64,000 nt of DNA from Anaerolineales bacterium (GTDB taxonomy: Bacteria > Chloroflexota > Anaerolineae > Aggregatilineales > UBA2796): contig JABTTZ010000004.1 of assembly GCA_015075625.1 (NCBI GenBank), positions 62,001 to 126,000 on the forward strand, in the 5' to 3' direction. Below the pieces are notes generated by a model that was not told the DNA's origin, made no database searches, and was given only the letters and a program-made list of their open reading frames with translations. Below are positions 5,635 to 34,372 of the stretch, piece after piece; positions within the stretch are counted from its first letter, which is position 1, and every line of letters starts with the position of its first letter. The position numbers and the translations under genes were made by a program.

Positions 5635-6780
5635 GTGGATTTATTTGAATATCAAGGGAAACAGTATTTCGCCAAATACGGGATTCCCGTCTCGCCCGGC
5701 AAAGCCGCCGATACCATAGAAGATGCCGTTAGCGCGGCGGAATCATTGGGCTATCCCGTTGTAGTGAAGGCACAAGTACAAGTAGGCGGGCGCGGCAAAG
5801 CTGGTGGCATCAAACTGGCGAACAATGCCGAGGAAACACGCACCCATGCCACAAATATCTTGAACATGGATATTAAAGGGCATATCGTCCGCCGTGTATG
5901 GATCGAGAAAGCATCCGACATTAAAAAAGAGTATTACGCCTCTTTTACGTTGGATCGCAGCGCGAAGAAATATTTGGGAATGCTCTCGGCAAAGGGCGGT
6001 ATAGACATTGAACAAGTTGCCGCCGAAGACCCCGCTGCCATTGCCCGCATTTATGTTGATCCGGTGATCGGTTTGACCCCAGAGACGTGCCGCGCTTGGG
6101 TAGAGGCGGCTCACTTAGACGCCGAAGCGCACGACGGCGCGGTGGATATTCTACTCAAACTCTACACCTGTTATACCAAAGGCGACGCCGATCTTGTTGA
6201 GATCAATCCCCTGATCCTCACCCCCGCTGGCAAGGTTCACGCCCTTGATGCAAAGGTTTCGCTCGATGACAGCGCGGCGGAACGTCACCCCGAATGGGAC
6301 GAATACCGAGGCTTGGAACAGCTTGACGAACGCGAAAAGCTGGCGAAAGAAAAAGACCTTCAATACGTTGGGCTGGATGGGACAGTGGGGATCATCGCCA
6401 ACGGTGCGGGGCTGGCAATGAGTACCGTCGATATTGTCAATCAGGTGGGCGGCAAGCCGGCGAACTTTCTCGATATTGGCGGTGGGGCGAACGCCCAGGT
6501 CATGGTGAACGCTCTCAATGTGATCAACACCGATCCGAAGGTGCAGGCGATCTTCATCAATATTTTCGGCGGGATCACCCGCTGCGATGAAGTAGCGCGG
6601 GGAATCATCGAAGCGATGGGACAGGTCACCCTTCGTGCGCCGATCATTGCCCGGTTGGACGGCACGAACGCCCAACAGGGACGCGAAATCTTGAAACAAA
6701 ACGAGTCTGATCGCTTGATCATGATGCCGGACATGCTGAGCGCGGCAAAACGCGCTGTCGAATTGGCGGCAAAGAGCTAA
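5635..6780 (+). CDS. sucC: Succinyl-CoA synthetase (ADP-forming), beta subunit
   Basis: The beta subunit of succinate-CoA ligase in the TCA cycle, which makes succinate plus ATP (or GTP) from succinyl-CoA. It begins with the family N-terminus (LFEYQGKQ) of the ATP-grasp domain and ends with the ligase domain holding GGANAQ and IFGGITRCDEVARGI. The start is GTG 5635, fixed by the good ribosome site AAGGAG eight bases upstream. Length 381 aa is normal. sucD follows after 18 bases, so the two form an operon and a complex. Confidence 0.97.
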   Translation: MDLFEYQGKQYFAKYGIPVSPGKAADTIEDAVSAAESLGYPVVVKAQVQVGGRGKAGGIKLANNAEETRTHATNILNMDIKGHIVRRVWIEKASDIKKEYYASFTLDRSAKKYLGMLSAKGGIDIEQVAAEDPAAIARIYVDPVIGLTPETCRAWVEAAHLDAEAHDGAVDILLKLYTCYTKGDADLVEINPLILTPAGKVHALDAKVSLDDSAAERHPEWDEYRGLEQLDEREKLAKEKDLQYVGLDGTVGIIANGAGLAMSTVDIVNQVGGKPANFLDIGGGANAQVMVNALNVINTDPKVQAIFINIFGGITRCDEVARGIIEAMGQVTLRAPIIARLDGTNAQQGREILKQNESDRLIMMPDMLSAAKRAVELAAKS

Positions 6781-6798
6781 GAAGGAATAGATAGAATC

Positions 6799-7680
6799 AT
6801 GGCTATTTTCGTCAATGAAACCACCCGCGTTGTTGTGCAAGGGCTAACCGGCAGTCAGGGGCGCTTCTATGGCTTGCGCAACAAAGCCTATGGGACAAAA
6901 GTTGTCGCCGGAACAAACCCCAAAAAAGCTGGTACAGATGTGGAGGGTATTCCGATTCGCGCCACCGTCCGCGAGGCTGTTCAAATGGACGGCGCGAATG
7001 CCTCGTTCGTCATCGTCCCCGCGTTTGCAGCAAAGGCGTCTGTCTTAGAAGCGGCAGAAGCAGGAATCCCGTTCATCGTTTGCGTGACAGAGCATATCCC
7101 CGCCCATGATCAGGCAATGCTCTATAACGAACTCAAACACACCTACCCCAACTCCCGCCTCTTGGGTCCAAACTGCGCTGGCATCCTCAGCCCGGGCAAG
7201 TGCAATATCGGCTTTAACCCCACCGAAGTGAGCAAACCCGGCGGTCCCGTCGGGATCGTCAGCCGTTCGGGGACGCTTGCCTACCAAGCGCTCTACGAGC
7301 TAACACAAGCTGGTATTGGGCAGACAACCTGCGTTGGCATTGGCGGCGATCCGGTGCCGGGGATGAGTTTCATCGATGTCCTAAGCGCCTTTCAAGCCGA
7401 CTCCGAAACCGAGGCAATCGTCATGATCGGGGAAATCGGCGGATCGGCAGAGGAAGAAGCGGCAGCCTTCATCAAGGCGAATGTCACCAAGCCTGTCGTT
7501 GCCTATATCGCCGGAGTTACCGCCCCCGCCGGCAAAAAGATGGGTCACGCCGGGGCGATTGTCTCTGGTGGAAAGGGGACGGCGAAGGCGAAGATGGAAG
7601 CGCTTACCGAAGCCGGCGTTTCTGTCGCTCTTAACCCAACAGAAATCGGCGGGCTGGTCAAAACCGTTCTCAAACGCTAA
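6799..7680 (+). CDS. sucD: Succinyl-CoA synthetase (ADP-forming), alpha subunit
   Basis: The alpha subunit of succinate-CoA ligase. It has the CoA-binding N-terminal part (VQGLTGSQGRFY), the middle GPNCAGI block, and the phosphorylated His (about residue 249) in KKMGHAGAIVSGGKGTA. Length 293 aa is normal. The ribosome site AAGGAA precedes ATG 6799. It is co-transcribed with sucC and followed by a 17-bp perfect hairpin. Confidence 0.97.
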   Translation: MAIFVNETTRVVVQGLTGSQGRFYGLRNKAYGTKVVAGTNPKKAGTDVEGIPIRATVREAVQMDGANASFVIVPAFAAKASVLEAAEAGIPFIVCVTEHIPAHDQAMLYNELKHTYPNSRLLGPNCAGILSPGKCNIGFNPTEVSKPGGPVGIVSRSGTLAYQALYELTQAGIGQTTCVGIGGDPVPGMSFIDVLSAFQADSETEAIVMIGEIGGSAEEEAAAFIKANVTKPVVAYIAGVTAPAGKKMGHAGAIVSGGKGTAKAKMEALTEAGVSVALNPTEIGGLVKTVLKR

Positions 7681-7687
7681 CCCTCAC

Positions 7688-7730
7688 ACCTGTATCCCCC
7701 TTTGTCCATGGGGCAAAGGGGGATACAGGT
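7688..7730. terminator. Long perfect hairpin between convergent sucD and sigma-factor genes
   Basis: Two 17-base arms (7688-7704 and 7714-7730) are exactly complementary around a 9-base loop. No T-run follows on either strand, so it may end transcripts by another route or protect 3' ends. Its place between convergent genes supports a bidirectional role. Confidence 0.55.
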
Positions 7731-7731
7731 T

Positions 7732-8592
7732 CTACAGGTGGCGCAATTTGTCAAGATTCAAGACGATGCGCACCACCTGAATTTTCGCCCCATCTGTCTC
7801 TAAAGAGATCACCGATTGGGCAGCGCCCCCTACCCGCAAGATCAATGCCGCTGTGCCATTGATCGTCCGCACCTCAAGCGTTGTCTCTGGCGAAATAAGC
7901 CGCCGCGAACTCACCAGCAAACGGGCAACGATCGCCGCCCCCACAATGGGTTTTGGTGAGGCGTGGACTTTCCCCCCGCCATCCGAGTATCCCACCGCGT
8001 CCTCTGCCAGCAGTGCCAGCAAGCCATCCATATCGCCCAGCGTCACCGCCGTGACAAACTTCGTCAAGATCGCTTGATGGGCGTCCGGGGCGGCATGGTA
8101 GCGGGGACGCTGCGCCATGACGTGTGCCTTTGCGCGGTGCAGCACTTGACGGCACGCTACCTCATCTTTCCCCACAAACACGGCGATCTCGGCGTAGCTG
8201 TAATCGAACACCTCATGGAGAAGGAATACTGCCCGTTCCACCGGAGATAACCGTTCAAGGATGAGCAAAAATGCCATCGAGATTGTCTCAGATTCACTCT
8301 CGGTAAGGTCATCGGGGGTGGGAAGCGGTTCGGGCAGCCACTCCCCTACATAAACCTCGCGCTGCGCCGCTGCCGATTTCAACCGATCCAAGCACAAATT
8401 CGTGACGATGCGCGTCAGATAGGCATCCGGCTCACGAATTGCCTCTAGGGAGGCAGTTTGGTAGCGGAGGTACGCCTCTTGGACAATATCCTCCGCCTCC
8501 ATGACACTGCTCAGCATCCGGTAGGCAATCCCAAACAAGCGGCGGCGCTGTCGCTCGAACGCATCGGTTCGGGCGTCTGGGGCATCACTCAT
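7732..8592 (-). CDS. ECF41-type RNA polymerase sigma factor with SnoaL-like C-terminal domain
   Basis: An extracytoplasmic-function sigma factor (286 aa): region 2 at residues 10-75 and region 4 at about 105-160 (SPVERAVFLL and a helix-turn-helix), then a SnoaL/NTF2-like extension. It carries the three hallmarks of the ECF41 group: WLPEP (85-89) in the linker, DGGGK (204-208), and NLDKL (279-283, usually NPDKL). In that group the extension controls sigma activity in place of an anti-sigma factor. ATG 8592 overlaps the upstream stop codon (ATGA) and has GGAG nine bases before it, so translation is coupled to the oxidoreductase. A longer frame to 8724 exists but lies inside that gene. Confidence 0.93.
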   Translation of the reverse strand: MSDAPDARTDAFERQRRRLFGIAYRMLSSVMEAEDIVQEAYLRYQTASLEAIREPDAYLTRIVTNLCLDRLKSAAAQREVYVGEWLPEPLPTPDDLTESESETISMAFLLILERLSPVERAVFLLHEVFDYSYAEIAVFVGKDEVACRQVLHRAKAHVMAQRPRYHAAPDAHQAILTKFVTAVTLGDMDGLLALLAEDAVGYSDGGGKVHASPKPIVGAAIVARLLVSSRRLISPETTLEVRTINGTAALILRVGGAAQSVISLETDGAKIQVVRIVLNLDKLRHL

Positions 8593-9737
8593 ACTGGACT
8601 CCATGTCAGTTCTGTTGGTTCTTCTGTCGGTTCGGGCTGCGCAGAAGGCAGCGTCGCCCGCAGCCATTGGTACGCTCCGGGAAAGCGGCGTTCCACCCGC
8701 AGCGCTGCAGTCGTGAAACGGCACACCGCCTCTTTAATCAGCGCAGCCACCCGTCCGGTGAGAATCCGCTCACGAGGGGTATCATCCGCCCGCGTCAGTT
8801 GGATCAAGCCCGCTCGCCGCCCGAGGCTGATGTTCTGTCCCGGATAGGCAAAGCGGAAGGGACGTTCATTGCCCATCCTTCGTAAGATATTTGAGGCAGC
8901 GTGCGCTCCCATCGGCATCGCCGTGACACAGCCCATTCGAATGCCGTCCAGCGCGGCGCTATCGCCAACGGCAAAAATGGCGCGGTGGGAGATTGAGCGC
9001 AGTGTTGAATCAACGCGCACTTGCCCACGCTCATTCACAGCAATACCCGCCTCCCGTGCCAGCGTTGGGACGGTGAACGCCCCCGCCCACAGAAGATGAT
9101 CATAACCGATTCTCCCCTCCTCAGTCAGCACCTCATCGGCTGTCACGCGGGTTACGCCTGTATGCTCGCGGAGGGTGATTCCCAACCGCTGGAACACAGC
9201 GCGTAGGTAGGCGCGTCCCTTTTCGGAAAGTCCTTCGCCAACGACGCCGCGAGTCAGCAGGGTAACGTTGATCGCTGGAAACGCCTCGGCAAATTCCGCC
9301 GCCGCCTCAATCCCCGTCAACCCGCCGCCACAGATCACCAAAGATCCTCCTTGCCGAAGGGCTGTATTCAGCCGTCCAAGGTGATCGCTATCTAAGGTGT
9401 AGGCATACTGGCGCACCCCCGGCACGCTATTTCGATCTGTGCTGCTCCCTAAGGCATAGATCAGCGTCTCATAGGAAAACATCCCCTCCGTCGTTGTCAG
9501 CCGCTGGGCGTTGGGGTCAATGCCCGTCACACCTGCCTGAAGGAAACGCACACCCGTCCCCCGCAGAAATGCGGCAATAGGGTAGGTGCGCCTCTCGCCC
9601 GCCGCCATCTCATGAAAACGAACCCGCTCGCCAAAGGTTGCCTCGCGGCTGATCAGTGTGACTTCTGCCTTGCGCTGTAAGCGAAGCGCAGCAAGAATCC
9701 CCGCGTAGCCCCCGCCTAGAATAGTTACCTGCTGCAT
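8589..9737 (-). CDS. FAD-dependent NAD(P)H oxidoreductase (NDH-2-like)
   Basis: A two-dinucleotide-binding-domain flavoprotein (382 aa). The FAD motif GGGYAG is at residues 8-13, the NAD(P) motif CGGGLTGIEAAAE in the middle, and AVGDSA binds FAD near the C-terminus. Similarity to type II NADH dehydrogenases is clear, but it lacks the C-terminal membrane helices of the NDH-2 at 60817. The start is ATG 9737, which has GGGGAG at proper distance; ATG 9743 is too close to it, and the long upstream extension is non-coding. Pairing with an ECF41 sigma factor fits the oxidoreductases typically linked to that group; it may be the regulated target (inference). Confidence 0.88.
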   Translation of the reverse strand: MQQVTILGGGYAGILAALRLQRKAEVTLISREATFGERVRFHEMAAGERRTYPIAAFLRGTGVRFLQAGVTGIDPNAQRLTTTEGMFSYETLIYALGSSTDRNSVPGVRQYAYTLDSDHLGRLNTALRQGGSLVICGGGLTGIEAAAEFAEAFPAINVTLLTRGVVGEGLSEKGRAYLRAVFQRLGITLREHTGVTRVTADEVLTEEGRIGYDHLLWAGAFTVPTLAREAGIAVNERGQVRVDSTLRSISHRAIFAVGDSAALDGIRMGCVTAMPMGAHAASNILRRMGNERPFRFAYPGQNISLGRRAGLIQLTRADDTPRERILTGRVAALIKEAVCRFTTAALRVERRFPGAYQWLRATLPSAQPEPTEEPTELTWSPV

Positions 9738-9950
9738 GGTCATTTCTCCCCTGAACAACGTGAATGGTGTCTCTAGAAAAGAATGACGAGGCGGCGATGC
9801 GTTTTGTGACAGCCTACATCTTGTTCGCAGGTTTTCCCTATCCTCTCCTGACCCTATCCCAATGATGGTTGCGCAAATCCGGCGCCTGCGCCATAATGCC
9901 CCCCACGCAATATGCGATAACCATCCGATTAGTGAAGCGGTGGGGAAACG

Positions 9951-12900
9951 ATGGCGACGACAAACCTTCGTGCCTATCTTGGCGAATTGAACAGCCTTCT
10001 TGAACAAGAAGCGCTGGAGGAAGTGATCGGTCACTGCCGCCATATTTTGCAGCACTTCCCCAAAAATGTAGAGACCTACCGTATCTTAGGGCAGGCACTT
10101 CTTGCACGGGGGCGCAACGACGAGGCTGTAGAGGTTTTTCAGCGCGTCCTCGGCGCTATCCCAGACGACCTGATCGGGACGTTTGGGATGAGCCGCGCCA
10201 ACGAACACCGCGATCCAAACGCCGCCCTCTGGTATATGGCGCGGACGCTTGATCAAGAACCCCATAACGACACCTTTCGGGAGGAACTGCGGGCACTTCT
10301 TGCCTCACGGGATGGCGACCTTCCCGAATCAATCCCGCTCACACGGGGGGCGCTGGCACGCCTTTATCTGCGCGGCGGGATGTACACAAACGCCATAGCC
10401 GAACTGATCAGTGCCTATAACGAGTCGCCCCAACGTGCAGATTTGGGCGTCCTCTTGGCGCAAGCACAGTGGGTGAGTGGCGATATGGTTGGTGCGGGCG
10501 AGACGGCGCTCCGTCTTTTAGAAACGAATCCCGACTGCCTAGAGGGAAATAAAATCTTTGCCGCCTATTGGATCAGGCTAGGACGCCCCTCTGACGCCGC
10601 ACCGTTTGTCTCTCGTCTGGAGCGACTTGATCCCTTCGCGGCTTGGGAGGCTGTTCACGGGGAGGGCGCGTCCCCACCGGAAAACGCTTTTAGCCTGCCC
10701 CGCCTTGTCTGGGATGCCCGTGCCGCTGCCCAAATGGCAACCGATGTCCCCGATTGGGTGTCCAGCATTGGCGAGGTGTTCGAGGCACCGGAATTATTCT
10801 CGCCAAGCACTGGCATTGGCGGAAATACCCCCTTTAACACCGATGCCAGTGGGACATTTACGATGCCCGTTGGGACGAAAGACCCGCTTGGTACAGGGTC
10901 GCTCCGCAAGCGCACGGGTATCACCGATATGTTCAACACCCCTACCGAAGAGGCTGCCTCTGGCGAAGCGCCGGATTGGTTTAAAGACATTGCCGAGGAT
11001 ACAGGGATGGGAACACCCCCTCTACCGCTCTCCGGCGGGGCGACCTGGCTAGACGAAGATGACGATTTGCCTAATTTGTCTTTTGATGCTGCGCCTAGCA
11101 CCGCCGATCTAGGCGGCGCGGCATGGCTGGCAGACGATGACAATGGCTTTCCCAATCTCACCCTTGATGCCGCCCCTAGCACCGCTGATTTAGGCGGCGC
11201 AGCGTGGTTGGCAGACGATGACGCCAGCGAGGACGTTCCCGCCGTTGATCCGTTGGCATGGCTGCAAACTGGGCAACTCACCGATCCTGATGCCACCTCC
11301 ACATCGCTCACCGCAGCGGAAGAAGACGAACCCGCCCTTGATTCGTTGGCATGGCTGCAAACTGGACAACTCACCGATCCTGATGCCACCTCCGCACCGC
11401 TCACCGCAGCGGAAGAAGACGAACCCGCCCTTGATTCGTTGGCATGGCTGCAAACTGGGCAACTCATCGATCCCGATACGCTGCCGCGGTCTGCTCAACC
11501 CATTGCCGCTGAAGAACCTGATGGCTTGGATGTTGGCTGGCTACTTGGGGAACAGCCCTCCCCTAGTGCCGAATTGTTCCCAAATGCGGCTGATGCCTTA
11601 GCCACATTTGATGTTCAGTCCGCCGAGTCCGCCCTTGACGCGCCAATGACCTTCGAGCGTGAAGGGGATATGCCAGAGGACGAACTTGCCCTAGACTTCA
11701 GCTTCCAAAGCCTTGAACTGCCTGCCATGCCCGCCCCATCCGCCCCTGAACTTAGTGGGGAGTTCGATTTTAATGCTGATCTCGCCCCTGATTGGCTCAG
11801 CAGCGAGACGCCCTCCAACGATTTCACCGAACTCGGCACAGCGCTTGACACCCTCAGCCTCTCTGAGACTCTCTCCGACAAAGGCGAAACCGCCCCTGCT
11901 GCCGAGGGCGACTTAGCGTTTGATTGGCTCAGCGGTGGCTTGGATTTACCCGACACCCCTACGTCAGCGCTCTCCTCGGCGGAAAGCACCGAGGATGATA
12001 CGCTGCTAACCGCAGACGCCCTGGCGCGAGATTGGTTGGGTGATGATGCCACCAGCCTTAGTACATCGGTGGTGCTTCCCGCTGCTACCGCACCCGATGA
12101 TCTAGACTGGCTGGCTGCCGATTTACCGCCCTTACCAACGACGCCCCCCATGCTGGAACGTTCCCCTGAGCTTAATTTTGAGGCGGAGTCCCTGCTGGAA
12201 GTGGGAAGCGAAAGGCTGGACATTGACTTATCCATTTTGGAAGGCTTTGCTCCCGATATAGCCCCGCCCGATGCCGCGCCCGATCCAATGGCGTGGTTTC
12301 AGCAGTTCCAAGCGACGGGCGAAGTACCTTCGGCGCCGCTCTTGGGAGAAGAAGGGGACGAAGCCGCCGCCGAAAGCGCTCCGGCGGCGGCTCTTGGTGT
12401 TGATTTTGACTCGCCGGAGGAGGCGCTCAACTTCCTGCTTAGTGATTCCCCCGCTGAAGAATCATCTGAGGAACGGCGCGAAGCCTCTGAAGCAGACGTG
12501 CTGGCATGGTTGCAAACGGAAAACACCGCTCCCTCTGGCGACCCGCTCGCTGCCCTGACGTTGGAACGTGAATTTGGGATCACCACGCCGCCGCCTGCCG
12601 AAGCCCCACCCTCTGCCGGATTGGATTGGCTGAACACTACTCCTGCTGCCCAACCCCAAGCCGATTGGCTGCAATCAATGCCCGCTGCCGCGCCTGCCGC
12701 GTCTACCAGTACCGATCTTGATGAATTTGCCATCCTGTTTGAAGCGAATTTGCCCGCCTTTAGCCCTCCTGATGATGCTCAATCTGCCGCGATCACTCCG
12801 CCTATGGAGATAGATTGGTTGGCGAAAGCGCAAGGGGGAGAAGGCGGACAACCAACGCCCGTCTTGGGAACGCCCCTGAACGAAACTCCCGCCGATTTCG

Positions 12901-23881: not shown

Positions 23882-25006
23882 TTAGCGCGTTTCGAGATAA
23901 ACGGGGACATTCATCAACGCCGCAAGGTGAGCAGCGGCGTGATGGGCGGGCGTGGCGATCTCGCGTAGATCAAGGATGCGGCGATCTTCCCGTTCGGCGG
24001 CGGCGTGAGCCATGAGACCCGGGCTATCGCTGACCTGACACAAGGGGATGAACCCTCGGCGCGACGAATAGGCATGAAGCCACACTTCTGCCGAAAACCG
24101 AAGCGCCCCACTCCCCCGTTCATCGTCGGTGTTCTGTCGTCGGTTGATCGTCTGGCTGAGAAGTAGGTAATCAATCCCTTCAAAGGGCGATTGAGCCAAG
24201 ATACGCCGTCCCCGTGTTTGCCGCCGCAGCAGCCCCGCCCGTCCATCGACAGAGACATGCACATCGCGGAAAACCTCCGCCCCTTGTCGCACGGCTAAGA
24301 CGACCAAAATAAGGGTAATCAGGACGCCCACATAGGGTAACCACTCTGGTTGCACGGGGGCAAAGATACTCGTCACCGCGCCGAGGGAAAGATAAGCAAA
24401 CACTGGCACAAGCAAGGCGAGGACAACCGTCCGTATGATCCCCCCGCGTCGCCACGCCGAGGGACGGCGTAGAATCAAGGTTTGGGGCGGATCAAGCGCA
24501 AGGACATATTCACCGCTGAGGTCGATGGGGAGCGGGAGCAAGGGGGGCGGGGGCGGGGCTTCCCGCGCTGGTTGGTCGTCCTCGTCAGGTTCGTCTTCGT
24601 CCGCCACATCTGGGACAGTTGGTTGGGGGGGGACATAGCGAAAGGGGCGCTGCAAGATTCCGGCAAGGCTTTCTCCGGCATCGCGTGCCGCCGCCGAATC
24701 CGCCGCTGCCCACACAGCTAAGCCACACCAACGCCCGCCGCGCTCAGCCGCCAGCGGCGGCGTCAGGATGATGCCCACATGCCATGTATTATCTTCCGCC
24801 GCGTACCCCGTGACGACCATCTGCACCCCATCTGGAGAAAGCGCTGAGGGTAGGCGTCGTGCGCGGGCAAAGTCCGCGTCACATTGGAGTCCTGAGGGGT
24901 CGCCTTGCACAAGAAGAATGGTGCGCCCTTCGTGGGCTTGGGTGAGCGTCCACGTGGCGGCAGTGTAATTTAGGCGGCTGTTATCTAGGCTAGTGAGCAA
25001 GGGCAT
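23882..25006 (-). CDS. Unknown protein with two membrane helices
   Basis: A 374-aa protein I cannot place. Residues 1-130 form a soluble domain, followed by a Pro/acidic linker (about 130-155). A basic patch (RRPSAWRRGG) precedes a pair of membrane helices (about 188-235), and the last 130 residues are soluble again. The helical hairpin leaves both soluble parts on the same side, probably the cytoplasm. It is divergent from the SIR2/STAND operon across 250 bases; whether it belongs to that system is open. Confidence 0.65.
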   Translation of the reverse strand: MPLLTSLDNSRLNYTAATWTLTQAHEGRTILLVQGDPSGLQCDADFARARRLPSALSPDGVQMVVTGYAAEDNTWHVGIILTPPLAAERGGRWCGLAVWAAADSAAARDAGESLAGILQRPFRYVPPQPTVPDVADEDEPDEDDQPAREAPPPPPLLPLPIDLSGEYVLALDPPQTLILRRPSAWRRGGIIRTVVLALLVPVFAYLSLGAVTSIFAPVQPEWLPYVGVLITLILVVLAVRQGAEVFRDVHVSVDGRAGLLRRQTRGRRILAQSPFEGIDYLLLSQTINRRQNTDDERGSGALRFSAEVWLHAYSSRRGFIPLCQVSDSPGLMAHAAAEREDRRILDLREIATPAHHAAAHLAALMNVPVYLETR

Positions 25007-25256: not shown

Positions 25257-26768
25257 ATGAATAGTGTTTTATTCCTCGGCGGCACAGCATTACGAGGGGA
25301 TCATCAGGCGCTTCCAGCCTCCCTCCGTTACAGCTTCAAAGAAGCCCGTGATCTCGGCACAGATAGCGATGCGGTGATGGCACTTGCCGCCCGGATGATC
25401 GATGATGCGGGAACGTATGCGGCAGTGCTGCTGGATGTCGAATTCTTCGGAGGGAGTGACGCCGGACTTGAGGCGACACTTGCCCTTCTGAGTCGGGTGA
25501 ACAGCGTGAAGCACCTCTTGGTTATTCTAAGTGGGACGCCCAAAGACCTCCCAAACTTGATCGCCCGTGTCGGAGATCGTTACCTCCGCCGCCCAGACGG
25601 GCTGCGCGGGGAGGTACTTACCCTCTGGCGCGGGGAATTGGGCGCCCGTCTTGCCCATTTGCTCACCAGCCAGCCCTCCCCCGAACGAGAGCAGCCCTCG
25701 GCACTTCTTGAAACGCCGAGTGGGATGGCAGCAGGTGTGGCTGTCCGCCGGCAACGCCCGCCGGATATTCCCCAAGCGGATATGGACACGCTGATCGCGG
25801 ATATGCTGCGCGGGCGGTTGATTCCCATTGTTGGGGCGGGACTGTACGATTATCCAGAGACAAACCACTACCGCTATACCCGTGATAAGTTGGCAGCGCA
25901 TTTGTTTGCCTATCACGATTTACCCTCGTTGGAAAACCCGCTCCGCAACCTGCCGGGGATTTCCCACTGGGTAAAGCGCTTGAAAGGCGATGCCACCCTC
26001 AAGGAAAACATCACAACGATTATCCAAGAGGAAGAAGATAAGTACCGCGATAATCGGGAAAGCGTGTTAGCCGTTGATCACCCCCTGCGTTTGTTGGCGC
26101 AGCTTCCTTTTCATGGCTATGTGACGACGGAATATGACGATTTGCTCTACTCTGAATTGAAAAAACGGCGGAAAACGCCGCGTCGCTCGCTGGTCAGCTG
26201 GTTCAAAAAGTCCAGCAAAGCCTATGAGGAGTTCTATCGGCAGTTGGATAAGACGAACACGACACTTGCCAAAGTGGATCAACTTTCGCACATCGAATCT
26301 GGCGCAGACGATGAAAAAGAACCGTTCGTTCTCTACCTAAATGGAAACAAAGACGTGCCGCGCTCCATGGTCGTCACCGAGATGGATTACATCCATTACC
26401 TACGCAGTGACACAAAAGACTTTCCCACCGCCATTCAGGAACGCATCCAAAATGTACCACTCTTGTTTTTAGGGCATGGCTTGTTCGATTGGAGTTTTAA
26501 ATTTGTCTTGAAAAGCCTGTTTCCCGGCGGGGTAGGTCACTCGTTGTTCCGCGAGATACTGACCAGCGACGGGGGGGGCAGTACTGCCGTAGAGACATGG
26601 TGTTACGCCGTTGAGCCAGATTTTGAAGATTATTCCCCCCGCCACCGCGATTACATCATTCAATACTATGGTGCGTTAGGGATTCGTGTTTTTTGGGCAG
26701 ACCCGCAAGCCTTCTTAAAAAGCGTGATCGACGCCTATACCGCCCGTACCGCCGCCACCGGAGGCTAA
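25257..26768 (+). CDS. SIR2-like protein with N-terminal receiver-like domain; catalytic residues replaced
   Basis: A 503-aa protein, first of a four-gene operon. Residues 1-135 look like a diverged receiver domain (AVLLDVEFFGG, LLVILSGT, RYLRRP); the usual N-terminal acidic pair is missing. From about 175 comes a SIR2-like domain: IPIVGAGLYDYP (nucleotide loop, about 190), VTTEYDDLLYS, LYLNGNKDVPRSMVVTEMDY, LLFLGHGLFDWSFKFVL. In NADase SIR2 proteins the second and third blocks read TTNYD and LHGD; here Asn is Glu and His is Asn, so NAD cleavage is doubtful and NAD binding or sensing is likelier (inference). The start could also be ATG 25248; neither has a strong ribosome site. The stop lies five bases before the STAND gene. 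Confidence 0.85.
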   Translation: MNSVLFLGGTALRGDHQALPASLRYSFKEARDLGTDSDAVMALAARMIDDAGTYAAVLLDVEFFGGSDAGLEATLALLSRVNSVKHLLVILSGTPKDLPNLIARVGDRYLRRPDGLRGEVLTLWRGELGARLAHLLTSQPSPEREQPSALLETPSGMAAGVAVRRQRPPDIPQADMDTLIADMLRGRLIPIVGAGLYDYPETNHYRYTRDKLAAHLFAYHDLPSLENPLRNLPGISHWVKRLKGDATLKENITTIIQEEEDKYRDNRESVLAVDHPLRLLAQLPFHGYVTTEYDDLLYSELKKRRKTPRRSLVSWFKKSSKAYEEFYRQLDKTNTTLAKVDQLSHIESGADDEKEPFVLYLNGNKDVPRSMVVTEMDYIHYLRSDTKDFPTAIQERIQNVPLLFLGHGLFDWSFKFVLKSLFPGGVGHSLFREILTSDGGGSTAVETWCYAVEPDFEDYSPRHRDYIIQYYGALGIRVFWADPQAFLKSVIDAYTARTAATGG

Positions 26769-26773
26769 CTGAC

Positions 26774-29700
26774 GTGACCTTCACTAACCCTTACCCCGGC
26801 AGACCGTACCACGAAGCCCATCCCCATTTCTATGGGCGGGAAACGGAAACCGATGATATATACCGGCTGATTGTCGCCAACGCGCTAGTGATTCTGCATG
26901 CCGTCTCTGGCGCGGGCAAAACCTCCCTGATCAACGCCAGTTTAATCCCCCGCTTGAGGAAGGAAAACCTTCAAGTTCTCCCCAAAGCGCGGGTGAACGA
27001 CCCACTTCCATTAGGAGAAGGGGCATTGGGGAATGTATTTAGCCAGAGCGTGATCCGCTATTGGCAGCGCGGCGGGTGGGGGGATACCATGCTGAGCGAG
27101 GCGACACTTCGTGAGATGTCTTTGGCGGACTACCTTGCCACCAACCGCCTTTACAACGAGACAAGTTACGGCACGAAGAAACCCCGCGTCGTGATTATTG
27201 ACCAAGCCGAGGAAATTTTCAGCCTACACAAGGAACGATGGGCAGACCGCCGCCCCTTCTTTGAGCAAATTCAGGCGGCGCTGGTGGCAGATCGCTATTT
27301 GCGTATTTTGTTGGCGCTGCGGACGGATTACCTCGGCTATTTTGTCGATAACCGCGAGGCGACCAGCCCGCTTGAAGGGATGGTTGAGACGCGGATCATG
27401 ATCCAACCATTAGACAAAGATCAGGTGATTGAGGTTATTCGCCGCCCAATGGAAGCGACGGGGTTCACCTTCTCCAACGCTGACGTTGTGGAGGCGCTCA
27501 AAACAGAACTGATGACAGAGAGCAGTCCCACCCACGAATTTGGCTATGAGGCGCAGTACGCCAAACCGATCCTTGTTCAGTTACGCCTTTACAAACTGTG
27601 GGACAAATTGCGCACCTACCAGCAGATGACGATCAGCGAGGATGTCCTCAGCGCGTACCCCATTCGCGATACACTTCGCGAAATTTATGAAGATGCCATT
27701 GCGCTGGGAGTGGTGCGCAATGTGTCTGGGGGCTTGGGTGCTGGGCAAGAGGGGGAAGGGCTGGCGGAGGCATTTTGCTACAGCACAGAAAGCCTTCGTC
27801 GCCTGATTCGCGAGCGGTTTTTGGCGGGCGAGGCACGGATCATGTATGAGGCGACCAGCGATGCGAACAAAAACGCCTATGCTGTCCTCAAGGATGCCGG
27901 CTTGCTTACCGATGAAAAGCGCGGCGAGCGCGACATTTACGAACTCTCTCACGATAGCTTTGTTGCCCCGGTGAAGTCGGATATTCCCCGTGAGGCAGTG
28001 GTTATTTTTTACCCCGCTGGACTGCGCTCCGCCAGTGATGTGCAAGCCGGGGAAAGGGCATGGCTGGTCTTTGAGGAACTGCTGCGGCTGCTCTACACAA
28101 CGCCCCTAACCGATGCGGACGGAACACGCCTTGATCTCGTCATTCTTCCACTGGATGAGAGGACGGGTGAATGTGCCTTGCCTTCTGATGGGTTTGATTC
28201 CGTTGGCGTTGAGGCTCTGCCTGCCAGCCCTTACGCAGTGCTGGTTGTGGAGGGAATATTCGAGGGGGAAAACGAGCCACCCCTGATTAGCGCAGCGCGG
28301 CGCTTATTGGAAGCGAACTGCCGCCCTCTGCTGACGCTTTCCTTAGCCTCATTGGATAATCAAGGGGTTTTTGCCGAGGTTTTGGCGGCGCTTGGAACGC
28401 GCCTCGCCCTTGCGCCGGTAGATCACCTGCCCATGCCAGATCGTGTTTATGAATCTTTCTATTTGCCAATGGCGCTCGGAAAACTGCACGAGGCGGTGAA
28501 CAAACCGACCATCCGTGAGCGCGTCGTGGGTATTGTGGGCGATGACAACCTGGGGAAATCCCAATTGGTGTGGCGTTTGGCGCGGCATTGTGATGTCCGC
28601 ACCCTTTTTGAGCGTATTGAGCGGATCGTAGAGGGGGGCGACTCCCCCCTTAATCCGGCGCAGCTTGTGACCGACGAAAAGCTCTTGATCATCTTGGACG
28701 ATGTGGCGCTACCCGGTACGCTGCTGAACACCTACCTTCGGGAAGACGCCCACTATACTATCCTTGTGACCACCCGCGAGCGCGGCGTCTTGCCCGCCGA
28801 AACAACCTCAGTGGTTGAGATGGTCTTTTCCGATTGGGCAGATGTGGAAAGTCTCTTTCGGGGTGAGACACCCTCAGCAGAGGGGGCGACACCCGATGCC
28901 CAGTCCCCCATGACAGAGATTGCCCAATCGCAATACAGTGCCGATATTCTGAATTTGGATTCAGGAAAGGGCAGCAAAGGGCGAGTCGGTGGGTTGGCGG
29001 ATGTGCTAGGGCGTGATCCGGGTGTGATCCGTCTGGCGCAAAAGGCGGTGAATCTCTACCGTTTTGATCCTATTGGCGGGCGCACCCTTCCCGCCGCCCA
29101 AAAAGCGTTGGTCGATGCGCTTGGCAAAGAATTCGTCGGGCTTTCTGACGGGCAAAAGCGGGATCACCTTTACCGCCATCTCCAAAAGACAATGGGTGTG
29201 CCAGCCTACCAAGCCCTGATACTCTTTACCTTGTTTCCCGCCGGGGCGGATGTGCCGCCAGCGGTCATAGAGCGGTTGCTCACCCGCACAGGAGAAAAGG
29301 ATCGCCTTCGCCGCCTTCTGGAACTCGAACTTGTTGAGCGCGATACGGAAGGCGATCTCTATGTGGATCGTTTGCTCTACGAATCCATCGTCCGCCATGA
29401 TCCATCCATCGCTGCCTTGCGCCGCGATCACACACTCTTTGCCCGGACGGATTTTGCGTACCTTGCCGCACGAGTCGTCTCCACCCGCCGCGCCTCTGTG
29501 GTGGAGGCAGAACTGCGGGATTTGCTGAATGATTCCGAGGTGATTCATTCTGAGCCTGATCGCACTCAGCTTGCCCACTTGCGGGGTTGGTTTGCCCGTA
29601 TGGCGCACGTCTTAGATCGCGCCGATGACGCCCGCACTGTCCTTCAAACGCTATCGATCAGTGCCGGAGACATTTTCCCCGCGCTGCGGGAGCGCGTTCT

Positions 29701-31663
29701 TGGCGATATGGCAACGCACCTGCGGGCAACACAGGCAGTGCCACAGATCGCCGCCGTCCAAATTCGCGGGCTTGTTGGCTATACCGAGGGCGTCCGCGCC
29801 AGCGCCATTAGCCCCGATGGGCGGCAGGTAGTTGGCGGCTCGGATAAGGGTGAGGTGATTCTTTGGGAGGTGGACACTGGGGCAAAGCTCCGCGCCTTTG
29901 ACGGGCATAAAGGGTTGATTGCCGACTGTGCCTTCACCCCCGATGGGCGTTACCTTGCCAGCGCTGGACTTTTTGACGGGCTGCGTGTCTGGGATCGGGA
30001 GACGGGCGAAGCCGTTTTTGAAGAAGATGAATTACGCCCCGTCAGCGTTCATTTTTCGGCGGATGGAACGTTGCTGCTCGTCACCGATGACCGCACCGAA
30101 AATCTGTTTATCTATGACATTCAGAGCAGCCCGCCAAAAGTCATTGGGCGGGTGGAGGGTCACGCTGACGCCGCTATGAGCAGCCATCCCGATGGGCGGT
30201 TGATCCTGACCACGAAACGCAATCAGGTGTTTCTCTATGACCGCGAAACACTGACGGTGATTCATCAGGAACGCCTTGCAATGAGCGATGGTGAGGCGTG
30301 GGGATGCGCCCTTAGCGCCGACGAACGTTACTTTGCCTTCGGTACATCGGAAGGCAAGATCACTTTGGGGAGCGTTGCCGAAAGGCGCATCCTCGACACA
30401 AAAGAGGTTTCACGGGTTGTCACCAACGAGGGACGCAGCGTTTTCCGCTGTGTTTTTAGTCACGATGGGCGCTATCTCTTTAACCCCTTTGGGGCAGCCG
30501 TCCAAGTGTGGCACATCAGCGAAAGCGGCACTTTGGAACACGTCCGCGAGCTTGCCGGACACACGGGCGAACTCTGGAGCATTACGACGAACGATGGCGG
30601 AAATCGGCTGGTGACAGGCAGCCTTGATACAACGGTGAAAGTTTGGGATATGGCTCAGATTGGGCAGGCAAACGCCCAAATGCACGAGGCGCGGGTGTGG
30701 GGGTTGAGCGCTGCTCCATTGGGGGTGAGAGGAAATGTACCGCTCATCGCTACCGGAGCGCTGGATCGCACAGCGCGGCTTTGGAAAGCCGAGGAGGAGG
30801 ATGGGATATGGCAGGTCGTAGGTATTGCTCCCCATAACACGCCGGTTATCGAGTCCCTTCTCAGCAGCAGCGGCGAGCGGCTGTACACCTTTTGCAACGA
30901 TAAAACGATGCACATGTGGGATGTGCGCGTTCCCGATGCCCCTCTGCGGCAAAGCACACTCGCCGCCAATTCGTGGTCGGTGAACCGAGCGATCCTTACC
31001 AAAACTGAGAGCGGATCGGATGTGCTTATTGGTATTGGGGATGACAAAACGGTTTACCTCCTCAACGCCGATCTGGGGAAGATAGGGTCATGTTATGTGA
31101 CGAACCCCGCCGCCTTCGTCAGCGATGCTGCGCTGCGCTATACAGTAGATGGCAAGCCGCAGCTTCTTACGGCGTGGTCGGATGCCACCGCCCGCCTCTT
31201 TGATCTGGACTCACTGAACACGCCACGCCCGCACCTGAACCGCGAATTCAACCATTCTGATGTGGATCGCTTGGCGCAAGTTTCCGCCTGTGCCTTTGCC
31301 CCCGATGGGCGCCTTGCGGTGACAGCCGTCCAAGTAGAGAGCAAAAACGAATACACCCTTTACCTGTGGAATATGGAAGATTTCCGTCGCCTGCGGGAGA
31401 TTGGGAGGCTGAACACCCGGCACAAATCGCGGGTTCACCGGTTAGCTGTCAGCCCCGATGGAAACTACCTCGCCTCGTTGGAAGATGCCGGGGCGCTGCG
31501 GGTATGGAGCTTTCCCACAGGCGAACTGGTGACGGCGGTCTACCTTGACGAGGCGCTCTCAAATGTCTTGTGGTTGCCCATGACGACAAACCAAGTGGGC
31601 AGCTATCCACTGGTTGCCACCGGACGGCATGGGGTGTATTTCCTGACGCTAGGGGGAGTGTAA
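26774..31663 (+). CDS. STAND protein: nSTAND1-like NTPase, second P-loop NTPase, 14-blade WD40
   Basis: A 1629-aa signal-transduction ATPase. Residues 5-60 match the nSTAND1 entry segment (NPYPGRPYHE, HFYGRE) with Walker A SGAGKTS (45-51) and Walker B VVIIDQAEEIF (139-149). An alpha/beta segment of unknown type spans about 408-550. A second NTPase of NB-ARC/AP-ATPase style follows: Walker A GDDNLGKS (about 588-595), Walker B LLIILDDVA (about 636), and TILVTTRERG. A helical region leads to WD40 repeats from about 996 to the end; I count 14 blades, enough for two seven-blade propellers. The start is GTG 26774, fixed by GGAGG at 26760-26764; the longer frame from 26693 overlaps the SIR2-like gene. 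Likely an NTP-switched sensor acting with the SIR2-like partner. Confidence 0.92.
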   Translation: MTFTNPYPGRPYHEAHPHFYGRETETDDIYRLIVANALVILHAVSGAGKTSLINASLIPRLRKENLQVLPKARVNDPLPLGEGALGNVFSQSVIRYWQRGGWGDTMLSEATLREMSLADYLATNRLYNETSYGTKKPRVVIIDQAEEIFSLHKERWADRRPFFEQIQAALVADRYLRILLALRTDYLGYFVDNREATSPLEGMVETRIMIQPLDKDQVIEVIRRPMEATGFTFSNADVVEALKTELMTESSPTHEFGYEAQYAKPILVQLRLYKLWDKLRTYQQMTISEDVLSAYPIRDTLREIYEDAIALGVVRNVSGGLGAGQEGEGLAEAFCYSTESLRRLIRERFLAGEARIMYEATSDANKNAYAVLKDAGLLTDEKRGERDIYELSHDSFVAPVKSDIPREAVVIFYPAGLRSASDVQAGERAWLVFEELLRLLYTTPLTDADGTRLDLVILPLDERTGECALPSDGFDSVGVEALPASPYAVLVVEGIFEGENEPPLISAARRLLEANCRPLLTLSLASLDNQGVFAEVLAALGTRLALAPVDHLPMPDRVYESFYLPMALGKLHEAVNKPTIRERVVGIVGDDNLGKSQLVWRLARHCDVRTLFERIERIVEGGDSPLNPAQLVTDEKLLIILDDVALPGTLLNTYLREDAHYTILVTTRERGVLPAETTSVVEMVFSDWADVESLFRGETPSAEGATPDAQSPMTEIAQSQYSADILNLDSGKGSKGRVGGLADVLGRDPGVIRLAQKAVNLYRFDPIGGRTLPAAQKALVDALGKEFVGLSDGQKRDHLYRHLQKTMGVPAYQALILFTLFPAGADVPPAVIERLLTRTGEKDRLRRLLELELVERDTEGDLYVDRLLYESIVRHDPSIAALRRDHTLFARTDFAYLAARVVSTRRASVVEAELRDLLNDSEVIHSEPDRTQLAHLRGWFARMAHVLDRADDARTVLQTLSISAGDIFPALRERVLGDMATHLRATQAVPQIAAVQIRGLVGYTEGVRASAISPDGRQVVGGSDKGEVILWEVDTGAKLRAFDGHKGLIADCAFTPDGRYLASAGLFDGLRVWDRETGEAVFEEDELRPVSVHFSADGTLLLVTDDRTENLFIYDIQSSPPKVIGRVEGHADAAMSSHPDGRLILTTKRNQVFLYDRETLTVIHQERLAMSDGEAWGCALSADERYFAFGTSEGKITLGSVAERRILDTKEVSRVVTNEGRSVFRCVFSHDGRYLFNPFGAAVQVWHISESGTLEHVRELAGHTGELWSITTNDGGNRLVTGSLDTTVKVWDMAQIGQANAQMHEARVWGLSAAPLGVRGNVPLIATGALDRTARLWKAEEEDGIWQVVGIAPHNTPVIESLLSSSGERLYTFCNDKTMHMWDVRVPDAPLRQSTLAANSWSVNRAILTKTESGSDVLIGIGDDKTVYLLNADLGKIGSCYVTNPAAFVSDAALRYTVDGKPQLLTAWSDATARLFDLDSLNTPRPHLNREFNHSDVDRLAQVSACAFAPDGRLAVTAVQVESKNEYTLYLWNMEDFRRLREIGRLNTRHKSRVHRLAVSPDGNYLASLEDAGALRVWSFPTGELVTAVYLDEALSNVLWLPMTTNQVGSYPLVATGRHGVYFLTLGGV

Positions 31664-32317
31664 ATGACCGTGCCACAAGCTGGTAAACCCGAAAACCTGA
31701 TACTGCAAGGGGAAATCCGCCGCTTCGTCGTGGGGGTTGTCGCTATTTTTGGAGTAGAGGATCGGGAAACCTACAAAGAACTGGCGTACAAGTATGCCAG
31801 CCTCAGTGATCGTTGTGCGCCGCTCGGCTTTTCCAAGATGGGATTTGCCGTTCCCGATTACGCCCTTGCCTTTTACGAGGGGGACACCGATGAGCCAGAA
31901 GACACCTCGGATCGTCTGGTGGGCGGGCAGCAAAAGCGCCGCTGTGCGGAGGACGACCTGCATTTCAACTTTCGGGAACGCTTTTCCACCCATAAATGCT
32001 TTATCATTGGCTATCTGGAAAGCCTCACCAGCGCGGGGGAGCCTGCCTTTGCCTATGTGAATGTGCGCGGAGATCGGATTTGCAAGCTGCTTTACCGAGG
32101 GATAAACGAGGCGAGTGCCTATTCGTTGGCAGATTTCGCCACCCTGATTCTAACGGGACAAGGAACGCCCACAAAGGAAAACCGCCAAAAACTGGCAGCC
32201 GATTACCTGTTCTCGCTTGCCCACGAAGACGGCGTTTATGACGAGGAAGGCTACACCCGTCTGCGCGGCGATCATGTCAACATTCGCCTTTTCCCGCCGC
32301 TGAATCAAGTAACCTAA
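31664..32317 (+). CDS. Unknown 217-aa protein, third gene of the SIR2/STAND operon
   Basis: No family recognised. ATG 31664 directly abuts the STAND stop codon (TAAATG) and GGGGAG lies eight bases upstream, so translation is probably coupled. The protein is soluble, mixed alpha/beta, without signal peptide or membrane helix. The N-terminal GEIRRFVVGVVAIFGV looks like a buried strand. Aromatic and charged residues are common (ALAFYEGDTDEPEDTSD, HFNFRERF). It may be an effector or regulator of the system, but nothing in the sequence shows which. Confidence 0.8.
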   Translation: MTVPQAGKPENLILQGEIRRFVVGVVAIFGVEDRETYKELAYKYASLSDRCAPLGFSKMGFAVPDYALAFYEGDTDEPEDTSDRLVGGQQKRRCAEDDLHFNFRERFSTHKCFIIGYLESLTSAGEPAFAYVNVRGDRICKLLYRGINEASAYSLADFATLILTGQGTPTKENRQKLAADYLFSLAHEDGVYDEEGYTRLRGDHVNIRLFPPLNQVT

Positions 32318-32551: not shown

Positions 32552-34372
32552 TCACCCCTTCAAGTCGCTGACAGATTTTTCCAATTCGGTGAGCTGCTGT
32601 GTATGGGCGGCAAGCTCCGCTTTGATCGTATCCGCTTGCGAGAGGTAGGTTTCGACCATTCGCAAAAAGGGTGCTACGGCGTCCCCGCGCAATTGCCGTC
32701 CATAGCTGATCTGTTCTCGTGCCGCGCTCATAAAGCGCTCGCTGTATTCTCGTTTTAACGCCTCTAAGCGCCGTCCATAGGCATTTGCCATCAGCCACCC
32801 GCGCAAGGGGAGGGCGGCGATTCCGCCAAGCATGGCGGCGAACATGGCAACGATCAACAACCCCGCCGAATTTCCCTGATTCGCCACACTGAGCAGCGTC
32901 AGCAGCAAACAACCCATGATTAGAATGCTCAAGAGATAGACGACCAGCGTCCCCGCTGTCATGCGAATCTGCCCATCAAGGGTGTCGGTCTCCATCTGCT
33001 GCGCTTTTTCAAGTGTTCCTGAAAGATCATCCCGCGCTTTATCCCACAGCGTCCGATCATAACGGGCAGGGGGGGTGAGATCGCCAATGACCTTCCCGCG
33101 CAGCGCACCGGGAAGGCGTTCTAACTCCCGCTGCGCATAGAGGACGAGATCATCAGTATCTTTCACATCGCGCCCTTCCAGACGCGGCGGGACGCGCTCC
33201 ACAAGCGGGGGGATCGTCGTCAGTGGTTCGATCACCCGCGCCCGTTCTGCCGCCGGAAGCATCCGGCTGACGACGACACTTCGCCGCCGAAACAAGCGCG
33301 GAAAGCGAATCACCTGCCCCAACCCGCTGAAAAGCAAGGGAAACACCTTTGACCACTGGAAAGTTTCGCGCAGAAGCGCTTTGCCGCGTAGTGCCGTTTC
33401 GTCAAATGCCGTTTCAAGGGCGGTGACAACCTCCCGCACGGTGGTGTCTTGTTCCTTTTGAGCGGCGTCAATCTGCCCACGAACATTTGCCGCCGAGCGT
33501 CGGTATTCGGCAAGGGCGTCTTGCTGTTCACGGATGCGGATATTAGCGGCGCTCATCACATTGCGGGCGATTTGAAGGGGTGTCTCCAGCTTTTGCCGCG
33601 CCCGTTCCACATCGCTTAGGGCGCGATTCAGATAGGTTTCAAACTGGCTGAATCCGCTCTGTTCCCAGAGGCGGGAATCACGCGGGGCGCTCTTTTGCGC
33701 CTCGCTCGCTAAGCGCGAGGAGACCAACCATACCTGAGGCTGTACGCCAAAGGCAGCCCGCACTTGCTCTGTGACAAAGCTCTGTAATGTTCCCCGTTCG
33801 CCTTCGTCCACAAGGTCAATCTGGTTGATCACGACGATCACTCGCTTGCCATAATCACGCAGCGATTCAAGGTATTCGCGATTGCTTGCCGACATTGCCT
33901 GCGTTGCCAACATGACATGAAAGACCAGATCGGCGCGGTGGAGGAACTTGCCGGTAATGGCATCATGCCCTTTGAAGACGGAATCGAGTCCGGGGGTATC
34001 CACAAGGCTGACACGCTCTAAGAGAGGGGTGGGGTGAAAGATCGTCTGAATATCGCTGCCGCCCATCGTCTGAGCGGTGCTGCCATGCCGCAGAATAGCG
34101 ATACGATCTGTGGTCGGTGTCGCCCCGACGCTGAGGACATTTTCCCCGATTAGGGCATTGATCAGGCTGGATTTTCCGGTGTTGAACGCGCCCAGAAACA
34201 CAGCAAGGTAGGGATGATCGGCATGAAAGAGGGCGTCCCGTGCCTGCTCAAGCTGGTCGGGAGGCAGTCCGTCCACCTTTCCTAATGTATCGACAAAGGC
34301 GGTCATCCCCTCAACGGTCTTTTGACGAAGTGCTTCATAGCGGGTGAGCAAGCCGGGGCGTTCAACAATCAC
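32552..34372 (-). CDS. Dynamin-like GTPase with C-terminal membrane hairpin
   Basis: A bacterial dynamin-like protein (606 aa). G1 is GAFNTGKSS (61-69), the G2 threonines lie in TPTTD (85-89), G3 is DTPGLDS (125-131) and G4 NQID (183-186). Long helical regions follow, with two closely spaced membrane helices at about 475-525 and a coiled-coil end. Such proteins remodel or guard membranes. The start is read as GTG 34372; an internal ATG at residue 23 is possible. It is convergent with the SIR2/STAND operon, 42 bases from its last gene, so a functional link is possible but not shown. Confidence 0.9.
   Translation of the reverse strand: MIVERPGLLTRYEALRQKTVEGMTAFVDTLGKVDGLPPDQLEQARDALFHADHPYLAVFLGAFNTGKSSLINALIGENVLSVGATPTTDRIAILRHGSTAQTMGGSDIQTIFHPTPLLERVSLVDTPGLDSVFKGHDAITGKFLHRADLVFHVMLATQAMSASNREYLESLRDYGKRVIVVINQIDLVDEGERGTLQSFVTEQVRAAFGVQPQVWLVSSRLASEAQKSAPRDSRLWEQSGFSQFETYLNRALSDVERARQKLETPLQIARNVMSAANIRIREQQDALAEYRRSAANVRGQIDAAQKEQDTTVREVVTALETAFDETALRGKALLRETFQWSKVFPLLFSGLGQVIRFPRLFRRRSVVVSRMLPAAERARVIEPLTTIPPLVERVPPRLEGRDVKDTDDLVLYAQRELERLPGALRGKVIGDLTPPARYDRTLWDKARDDLSGTLEKAQQMETDTLDGQIRMTAGTLVVYLLSILIMGCLLLTLLSVANQGNSAGLLIVAMFAAMLGGIAALPLRGWLMANAYGRRLEALKREYSERFMSAAREQISYGRQLRGDAVAPFLRMVETYLSQADTIKAELAAHTQQLTELEKSVSDLKG

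What the first reader, a model, noticed from the sequence alone, without database searches (positions are those of the whole stretch)
25824..26520. SIR2-like domain without the catalytic Asn and His
At the places where NADase SIR2 proteins read TTNYD and LHGD, this protein reads TTEYD and LNGN. The downstream LTEMDY and LGHGLFDW blocks still align, so the positions are secure. The first glycine loop is also altered (GAGLYDYP). Either it is a sensor that binds NAD or another nucleotide, or catalysis uses other residues.
Basis: partly seen in the sequence, partly recalled or inferred. Interest (0 to 1): 0.62.

Follow-up and report, generated by a model that had tools for sequence, protein, structure and literature searches.

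The report
SIR2-like partner of STAND, catalytic Asn lost
A bacterial immune-type gene pair carries an NAD-cutting (SIR2) fold in which the key asparagine has become glutamate; relatives that have a second weapon, a protease, have lost the same active site, which suggests that the fold can serve as a connector instead of an enzyme.

Summary
P0001 (25257-26768 +, 503 aa) is a true SIR2_2 protein: Pfam 49.3 bits against a cut-off of 24.5, structural Z 21.9 to DSR2. The positions of ThsA Asn112 and His152 read Glu292 and Asn362. Glu at the first occurs in no other row I aligned. The interpretation needs two corrections. HG-to-NG alone is not a mark of death: Avs5 NADases use NG (PMC12931631). And GAG is intact; only a short insertion follows it. 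The informative change is Asn to Glu.

P0001 opens a three-gene operon with an nSTAND1/WD40 protein. In 70 of 80 related loci a STAND gene lies just downstream of SIR2. SIR2 rows fused to CHAT protease: 26 of 26 have lost Asn and/or His; without CHAT, 50 of 54 keep both (few independent events). A further clade has standalone pseudo-SIR2 genes, often between a CHAT/FGS gene and STAND. Most likely P0001 too is a non-hydrolysing coupling module, the output being carried by its unidentified N-terminal domain or a partner. P0001 keeps more of the pocket than most such relatives, so altered catalysis stays open. No activity was measured.

The parts
25257..26768 (+). P0001, 503-aa protein: N-terminal alpha/beta domain plus SIR2-like domain
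25257..25751 (+). N-terminal region (residues 1-165): predicted alpha/beta domain (1-137) and low-confidence linker; no Pfam match; candidate effector or adaptor, identity open
25758..26765 (+). SIR2-like domain (residues 168-503)
   Evidence: Pfam PF13289; VIA-align Z 21.9 to DSR2, 21.4 KomC, 20.9 ThsA
25833..25841 (+). GAG loop (G193-A194-G195), intact; followed by a short insertion at residues 198-202
26130..26132 (+). Glu292 at the position of ThsA Asn112 (TTEYD)
26340..26342 (+). Asn362 at the position of ThsA His152 (LNGN)
26774..31663 (+). P0002, 1629 aa: nSTAND1 NTPase, weak second NB-ARC-like P-loop region, WD40 repeats; starts 5 bases after the P0001 stop
26900..26923 (+). Walker A of the nSTAND1 domain (AVSGAGKT), intact
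28538..28561 (+). second P-loop (GDDNLGKS) in the NB-ARC-like region
31664..32317 (+). P0003, 217 aa, third gene of the operon; a related domain is seen twice at the C-terminus of another STAND protein (L147)

Best explanation
P0001 is a SIR2-fold protein that has most likely given up canonical NAD hydrolysis and works as the coupling (scaffold or adaptor) module of a STAND immune-type system. Proposed steps: the WD40/nSTAND protein P0002 senses a trigger (inferred), oligomerises with nucleotide (inferred from its intact Walker motifs), and gathers P0001 through its SIR2 fold (inferred from the gene order and from the assembly of active SIR2-STAND proteins). The signal passes to a non-SIR2 output: the N-terminal alpha/beta domain of P0001, which sits where relatives carry the CHAT protease, or another partner (inferred). 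Shown here: the fold (by prediction), the two substitutions, the operon-like gene order, and the pattern of pocket loss in relatives. Not shown: any activity, binding or complex.
For: Glu292 replaces the Asn whose Ala mutants abolish ThsA and PaAvs5 function. P0001 matches 37 of 57 highly conserved family columns; the lowest of 80 relatives matches 45. Its end branch is 3.37 changes per column against a median of 0.23. CHAT in the same frame: 26 of 26 SIR2 rows lack Asn and/or His; no CHAT: 50 of 54 keep both. On the 114-row set: 48 of 48 against 11 of 66 degraded, P0001 included in the 11 (2 of the 48 were set to CHAT by me, one with Pfam support). The CHAT Cys is retained in 22 and the His in 23 of 25 fusions. 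A further set of 37 standalone rows: none keeps GxG, 32 lack the Asn, 32 have STAND just downstream and 24 have a CHAT and/or FGS gene just upstream. Precedent: in rabbit SAMD9, tRNase activity of a fragment needs the SIR2 region (PMC12331169, passages).
Against: P0001 has no recognised CHAT, TIR or other warhead, so the 'second weapon' rule is not demonstrated for it. It keeps GAG, TT, Y293, D294, the NG used by Avs5 and D411, more of the NAD site than the standalone pseudo-SIR2 clade does. Its class score lies between intact and degraded rows (7.2; intact -325 to -37.5, degraded -95.1 to 391.5). It is not placed securely in the degraded clade. The CHAT association rests on few events: 4 changes of CHAT state and 6 of pocket state on the tree, and a sign test over independent pairs cannot reach significance (median p 0.5). 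Three standalone rows of the second form keep both Asn and His.
Confidence: 0.5

Rival explanations
1. P0001 is still a NAD-processing enzyme with altered chemistry: Glu292 acts in place of the Asn (as Glu does in TIR and CD38 NAD glycohydrolases; recalled) together with the Avs5-type NG.
For: GAG, TT-Y-D and D411 retained; NG is functional, and preferred over HG, in PaAvs5.
Against: No relative has Glu at 292, so there is no sign that this Glu is conserved. Fast divergence and loss of other near-invariant columns such as H360. In this family the other NG rows (L042, L025, L037) have also lost the Asn.
Confidence: 0.17
2. P0001 binds NAD, ADP-ribose or another nucleotide without cutting it and gates the STAND protein.
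For: GAG loop and most of the pocket frame kept; DSR2 H171A and KomC H146N have been solved with NAD or NAD fragments (titles).
Against: ThsA N112A did not bind NAD in the published assay; a carboxylate near the nicotinamide ribose is untested; no ligand was modelled here.
Confidence: 0.2
3. A decaying effector: the gene is losing function and the substitutions are drift.
For: Longest branch in the tree; no close orthologue in the 154 genomes of the order.
Against: Intact 503-codon frame, tight spacing to an intact 1629-codon partner with complete Walker motifs; many family columns retained (37 of 57).
Confidence: 0.1

Closest known systems
Avs5 (SIR2-STAND; PaAvs5, EfAvs5)
   Same: SIR2_2 fold next to a STAND NTPase; NG in place of HG; Z 17.7 and 16.1 to solved Avs5 chains
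   Different: In Avs5 SIR2 and STAND are one chain and the TTN Asn is present; here two genes, Asn is Glu, plus an extra N-terminal domain and a WD40 partner
ThsA (Thoeris) and DSR2
   Same: SIR2 fold, GAG, TT-YD frame; best structural matches
   Different: Both keep Asn and His; ThsA has a C-terminal SLOG domain, DSR2 a long C-terminal part; P0001 ends with its SIR2 domain
CHAT-SIR2 | nSTAND operons of Chloroflexota and others (seen in this survey)
   Same: SIR2 gene directly before an nSTAND-type gene; catalytic pair lost
   Different: Relatives carry CHAT in front of SIR2 or in the gene upstream; P0001 has an unidentified 165-residue region instead
SAMD9 family (tRNase - variant SIR2 - STAND - TPR - OB)
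   Same: A variant SIR2 domain between a different effector and a STAND-like NTPase (PMC5445408, passages); SIR2 region needed for tRNase activity of a rabbit SAMD9 fragment (PMC12331169, passages)
   Different: One chain, animal and actinomycete proteins, other effector; no sequence comparison with P0001 was made here
FAM118A/B sirtuins
   Same: SIR2_2 fold, Z 15.9; partnership and assembly control activity (PMC12700824, passages)
   Different: Keep Asn and His, and are active together

Membership tests
SIR2_2 (Pfam PF13289) domain superfamily | Match over the curated score | tested here: met
   49.3 bits against 24.5, residues 288-421
SIR2_2 (Pfam PF13289) domain superfamily | SIR2 fold | tested here: met
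   AF2 model, Z 21.9 to DSR2 over 253 residues, rmsd 3.0
SIR2 NAD hydrolases (ThsA, DSR2, Avs5 type) | Asn in TTNxD | tested here: not met
   Glu292
SIR2 NAD hydrolases (ThsA, DSR2, Avs5 type) | His (HG) or, in Avs5, Asn (NG) | tested here: met
   NG present, HG absent; NG functional in PaAvs5
SIR2 NAD hydrolases (ThsA, DSR2, Avs5 type) | GAG loop | tested here: met
   G193-A194-G195
SIR2 NAD hydrolases (ThsA, DSR2, Avs5 type) | NAD hydrolysis | not testable with these tools
   needs a bench assay
Avs5 | SIR2 and STAND in one polypeptide | tested here: not met
   separate frames, stop at 26766-26768, next start 26774
ThsA / Thoeris | C-terminal SLOG domain in the same chain | tested here: not met
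   the protein ends with the SIR2 domain; no SLOG match by Pfam at E up to 1
ThsA / Thoeris | TIR partner gene (ThsB) | tested here: inconclusive
   no TIR among the Pfam rows shown for P0001-P0003 and the two flanking genes (for P0002 only 25 of 49 rows were shown, its segments were rescanned without TIR); genes further away were not scanned
nSTAND1-linked SIR2 operons | STAND gene directly downstream of SIR2 | tested here: met
   P0002 nSTAND1 104 bits against 27.1; 70 of 80 related loci
CHAT-SIR2 subfamily | CHAT domain fused or in the gene upstream | tested here: not met
   no CHAT Pfam match in P0001, P0003 or the scanned segments of P0002; the upstream gene 23882-25006 is on the other strand and has no Pfam match; N-terminal region scores like shuffles against a CHAT profile
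Receiver, TIR or nucleoside deoxyribosyltransferase (N-terminal region) | sequence or fold match | tested here: inconclusive
   fold Z at most 7.7, mixed folds; profile scores equalled by 232, 24 and 130 of 2000 shuffles for receiver, TIR, NDT

The most novel reading that the evidence does not exclude
P0001 is a SIR2 fold that has switched catalytic type: Glu292, in the seat of the obligatory Asn, works with the Avs5-type NG as a glutamate-dependent NAD glycohydrolase or cyclase, the kind of chemistry known from TIR and CD38 proteins (recalled), under control of a WD40-STAND sensor.
Probability: 0.12. Interest if true: 0.85.

Novelty: new variant of a known kind. Interest (0 to 1): 0.55.

Why it matters
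SIR2 domains in defence genes are usually annotated as NADases. The survey suggests that many SIR2 domains encoded next to nSTAND genes are not canonical ones, in a pattern that follows the presence of another effector. If confirmed, a common enzyme fold has been reused as a connector between sensor and weapon, and the unexplained SIR2 domain of SAMD9, where the SIR2 region supports a different effector, would have a bacterial parallel that is easier to study. It also warns against calling such systems NAD-depleting from a Pfam match alone.

Tried and rejected
1) Receiver (response-regulator) N-terminal domain: looked plausible by eye, but Pfam gives nothing at E up to 10, the place is not among the PF00072 matches of the own genome, and a home-made receiver profile scores it no better than many shuffles (232 of 2000). 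TIR was the best of the profiles tried (24 of 2000 shuffles as good), not convincing over five profiles (receiver, TIR, NDT, CHAT, FGS). NDT and CHAT failed too (130 and 246 of 2000); the FGS profile reported no score for it.

2) The order-wide N-terminal hit L022 is an SppA-like protease frame by my reading; I treat it as chance.

3) Fold search of the N-terminal model alone: Foldseek best hits were CD38 at E 0.0098; VIA-align Z up to 7.7 with mixed folds; single-sequence model, mean pLDDT 63.7; inconclusive.

4) First genome-contig scan with P0001 alone: 39 stretches, no relative.

5) A log-odds class score with unequal pseudocounts was biased; I replaced it and do not use the first.

6) One search used a query in which P0001 and P0002 were joined by a file-reading mistake; corrected. 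It only hinted that STAND frames lie beside SIR2; the count used is.

7) Papers: searches of the open-access library listed no report that I recognised as describing pseudo-SIR2 domains in CHAT/nSTAND operons (I read titles and abstract starts of the listings, and passages of the eight papers cited); subscription papers and preprints are mostly not held. KomC is cited from PDB entry titles only.

8) Not done: NAD docking, complex modelling of P0001 with P0002, dN/dS (no close orthologue).

Full report
WHAT IS THERE. The finding lies in P0001, window 25257-26768 +, 503 residues. It opens a tight operon-like row: P0002 (26774-31663, 1629 aa) starts five bases after its stop, and P0003 (31664-32317, 217 aa) starts right after the stop of P0002. 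Pfam finds SIR2_2 in P0001 (residues 288-421, 7.2e-13) and nSTAND1 plus WD40 repeats in P0002; a second P-loop region of P0002 resembles NB-ARC weakly (0.0061, under its cut-off), and both Walker A motifs are intact. P0003 has no Pfam match.

THE OBSERVATION. With P0001 aligned to 80 relatives, residue 292 is Glu where 65 of 80 have Asn, and residue 362 is Asn where 53 of 80 have His. A profile from that alignment matches solved ThsA chains (7uxt 2.6e-28, 6lhx 4.4e-21), with the TTN and HG motifs in register. The AF2 model has mean pLDDT 92-96 over 281-300 and 90-92 over 351-370 and superposes on DSR2, KomC and ThsA with Z 21.9, 21.4 and 20.9. So the positions are secure. GAG is intact; the odd feature there is a short insertion (198-202) absent from 77 to 79 of 80 relatives. 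No other row in the sets compared has Glu at 292.

WHAT THE CHANGES MEAN. ThsA N112A and H152A abolish NAD cleavage; neither mutant bound NAD, and H152A also disturbed the oligomer (PMC7272460, passages). PaAvs5 N110A and D112A lose defence; but PaAvs5 naturally reads NG for HG, needs that Asn, and works less well with His (PMC12931631, passages). So Asn362 of P0001 is compatible with activity, while Glu292 is not expected to be. D294 and D411 are kept; I take D411 to be the counterpart of PaAvs5 E202 from the spacing only.

RELATIVES AND CONTEXT. No close orthologue exists in the 154 genomes of the order that were searched (seven have a match at E 0.001 or better: the own genome, five SIR2 relatives at 29-35% identity, and the chance hit L022). 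SIR2 relatives at the thresholds used occur in 11 of 400 genomes in the phylum draw and 38 of 298 in the class draw, both counts including the own genome. In 70 of 80 loci from named genomes a STAND frame lies just downstream. All 25 long frames given to Pfam contain both CHAT and SIR2_2, and three contain TIR_2. One class-mate contig has the length of a contig of an Anaerolineales genome among the named records (G586:C424, 26377 bases), so the window is probably from Anaerolineae, Chloroflexota; this is inference.

THE PATTERN. Among the 80 rows of A2, SIR2 domains with CHAT in the same frame have lost Asn and/or His in 26 of 26; without CHAT, 50 of 54 keep both (Fisher p 3.6e-17, which ignores kinship). 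Two of the four exceptions are the archaeal proteins L069 and L094 (TTT); L069 has a C-terminal CHAT by Pfam. By length of the N-terminal part the split is the same: 0 of 24 rows with 300 or more residues in front keep both, 48 of 53 short ones do (of 3 rows with 100-299 residues, 2 keep both). In a 114-row set the numbers are 48 of 48 and 11 of 66 degraded. The CHAT His is kept in 23 and the Cys in 22 of 25 fusions; in L096 and L118 the CHAT pair is lost, and L096 has an N-terminal TIR.

A SECOND FORM. A clade of standalone pseudo-SIR2 genes lies next to other effector or sensor genes: CHAT-FGS upstream in L122 and L126, FGS in L123 and L124, EAD1-FGS in L125 (Pfam; neighbourhoods). A profile from six relatives plus P0001 found 78 of 396 class genomes with a match, the own one included. 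I then read 50 SIR2 rows: 31 stretches that I chose from that list, the five loci L122-L126, and L257-L268; this is not a census. Of the 50, 37 have no CHAT in frame: none of these keeps GxG, 32 lack the Asn, 32 have STAND just downstream, 24 have CHAT and/or FGS just upstream, and 3 keep both Asn and His; the other 13, with CHAT in frame, all lack one or both.

WHERE P0001 STANDS. On the quick tree P0001 has an end branch of 3.37 (median 0.23) and no supported place. It matches 37 of 57 conserved columns, against at least 45 for every one of the 80 relatives. A class score puts it between intact and degraded rows (7.2). It keeps GAG, TT, Y, D and NG. So it is a separate, strongly diverged lineage, not a clear member of the pseudo-SIR2 clade with the lost glycine loop.

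LIMITS. The association of pocket loss with CHAT is strong by count, but the tree needs only 4 changes of CHAT state and 6 of pocket state; the sign test over independent pairs gives a median p of 0.5 and cannot reach significance. For P0001 no alternative effector is identified. Its N-terminal region is a predicted alpha/beta domain without a convincing relative: best VIA-align Z 7.7, mixed folds; profile tests for receiver, TIR, NDT and CHAT are not convincing.

P0003. A related domain occurs twice at the C-terminus of a STAND-like protein in another genome of the order (L147, frame 6042-10307) and in a two-copy fragment (L146). I therefore regard P0003 as a STAND-associated module, perhaps a sensor; this is inference, and the domain names given to the L147 protein are my reading of its sequence, not a Pfam result.

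MECHANISM. I favour a coupling role for the SIR2 fold, at 0.5. The precedent outside bacteria is SAMD9: a variant SIR2 between an N-terminal effector and a STAND-like NTPase (PMC5445408, passages); a rabbit SAMD9 fragment cuts tRNA only if the SIR2 region is included (PMC12331169, passages). Inactive enzyme domains are common in related conflict systems (Kaur et al. 2020, PMC7159879, passages; SIR2 and CHAT are not mentioned in its main text). A nucleotide sensor (0.2), an altered enzyme using Glu292 (0.17) and decay (0.1) remain.

NOVELTY. P0001 is a new variant of the SIR2-STAND kind. My library searches listed no description of pseudo-SIR2 modules in CHAT/FGS/nSTAND operons; the library lacks most subscription papers and preprints, so this is not proof of absence.

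Noticed in passing
L147:6042-10307 (-), L146:4559-5404 (-): A domain like P0003 occurs in two tandem copies at the C-terminus of a large STAND-like protein and in a two-copy fragment; no Pfam name for P0003 itself.
   Followed up: partly
L096 and L118 (Accumulibacter); L090 (Geodermatophilus): TIR_2 with CHAT and SIR2_2 in one chain (Pfam for L096 and L090; L118 is near-identical to L096 in the tree); in L096 and L118 the CHAT His-Cys pair is lost and the SIR2 reads N/F, in L090 V/H.
   Followed up: partly
L069 and L094 (Methanosarcinaceae, Methanosarcina): SIR2 first, CHAT after it (Pfam for L069 only), with TTT in place of TTN: the order of the domains is reversed but the pocket is again changed.
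   Followed up: partly
L083, L050, L091: Two SIR2 genes in a row before a STAND gene; in L083 the first is intact and the second reads D/Y.
   Followed up: no
G000:C1:1500516-1500896 (L148:5698-7122 -): The only other SIR2_2 match in the own genome reads TPNLD and LHG, so the genome also has a more canonical SIR2.
   Followed up: no
window 32552-34372 (-): Dynamin-family GTPase gene, convergent with the operon, like LeoA and LeoBC of PADLOC.
   Followed up: no
P0001 residues 360 and 407: The family has His at 360 (75 of 80) and Tyr or Phe at 407 (79 of 80); P0001 has Tyr360 and His407, the reverse. May be chance.
   Followed up: no
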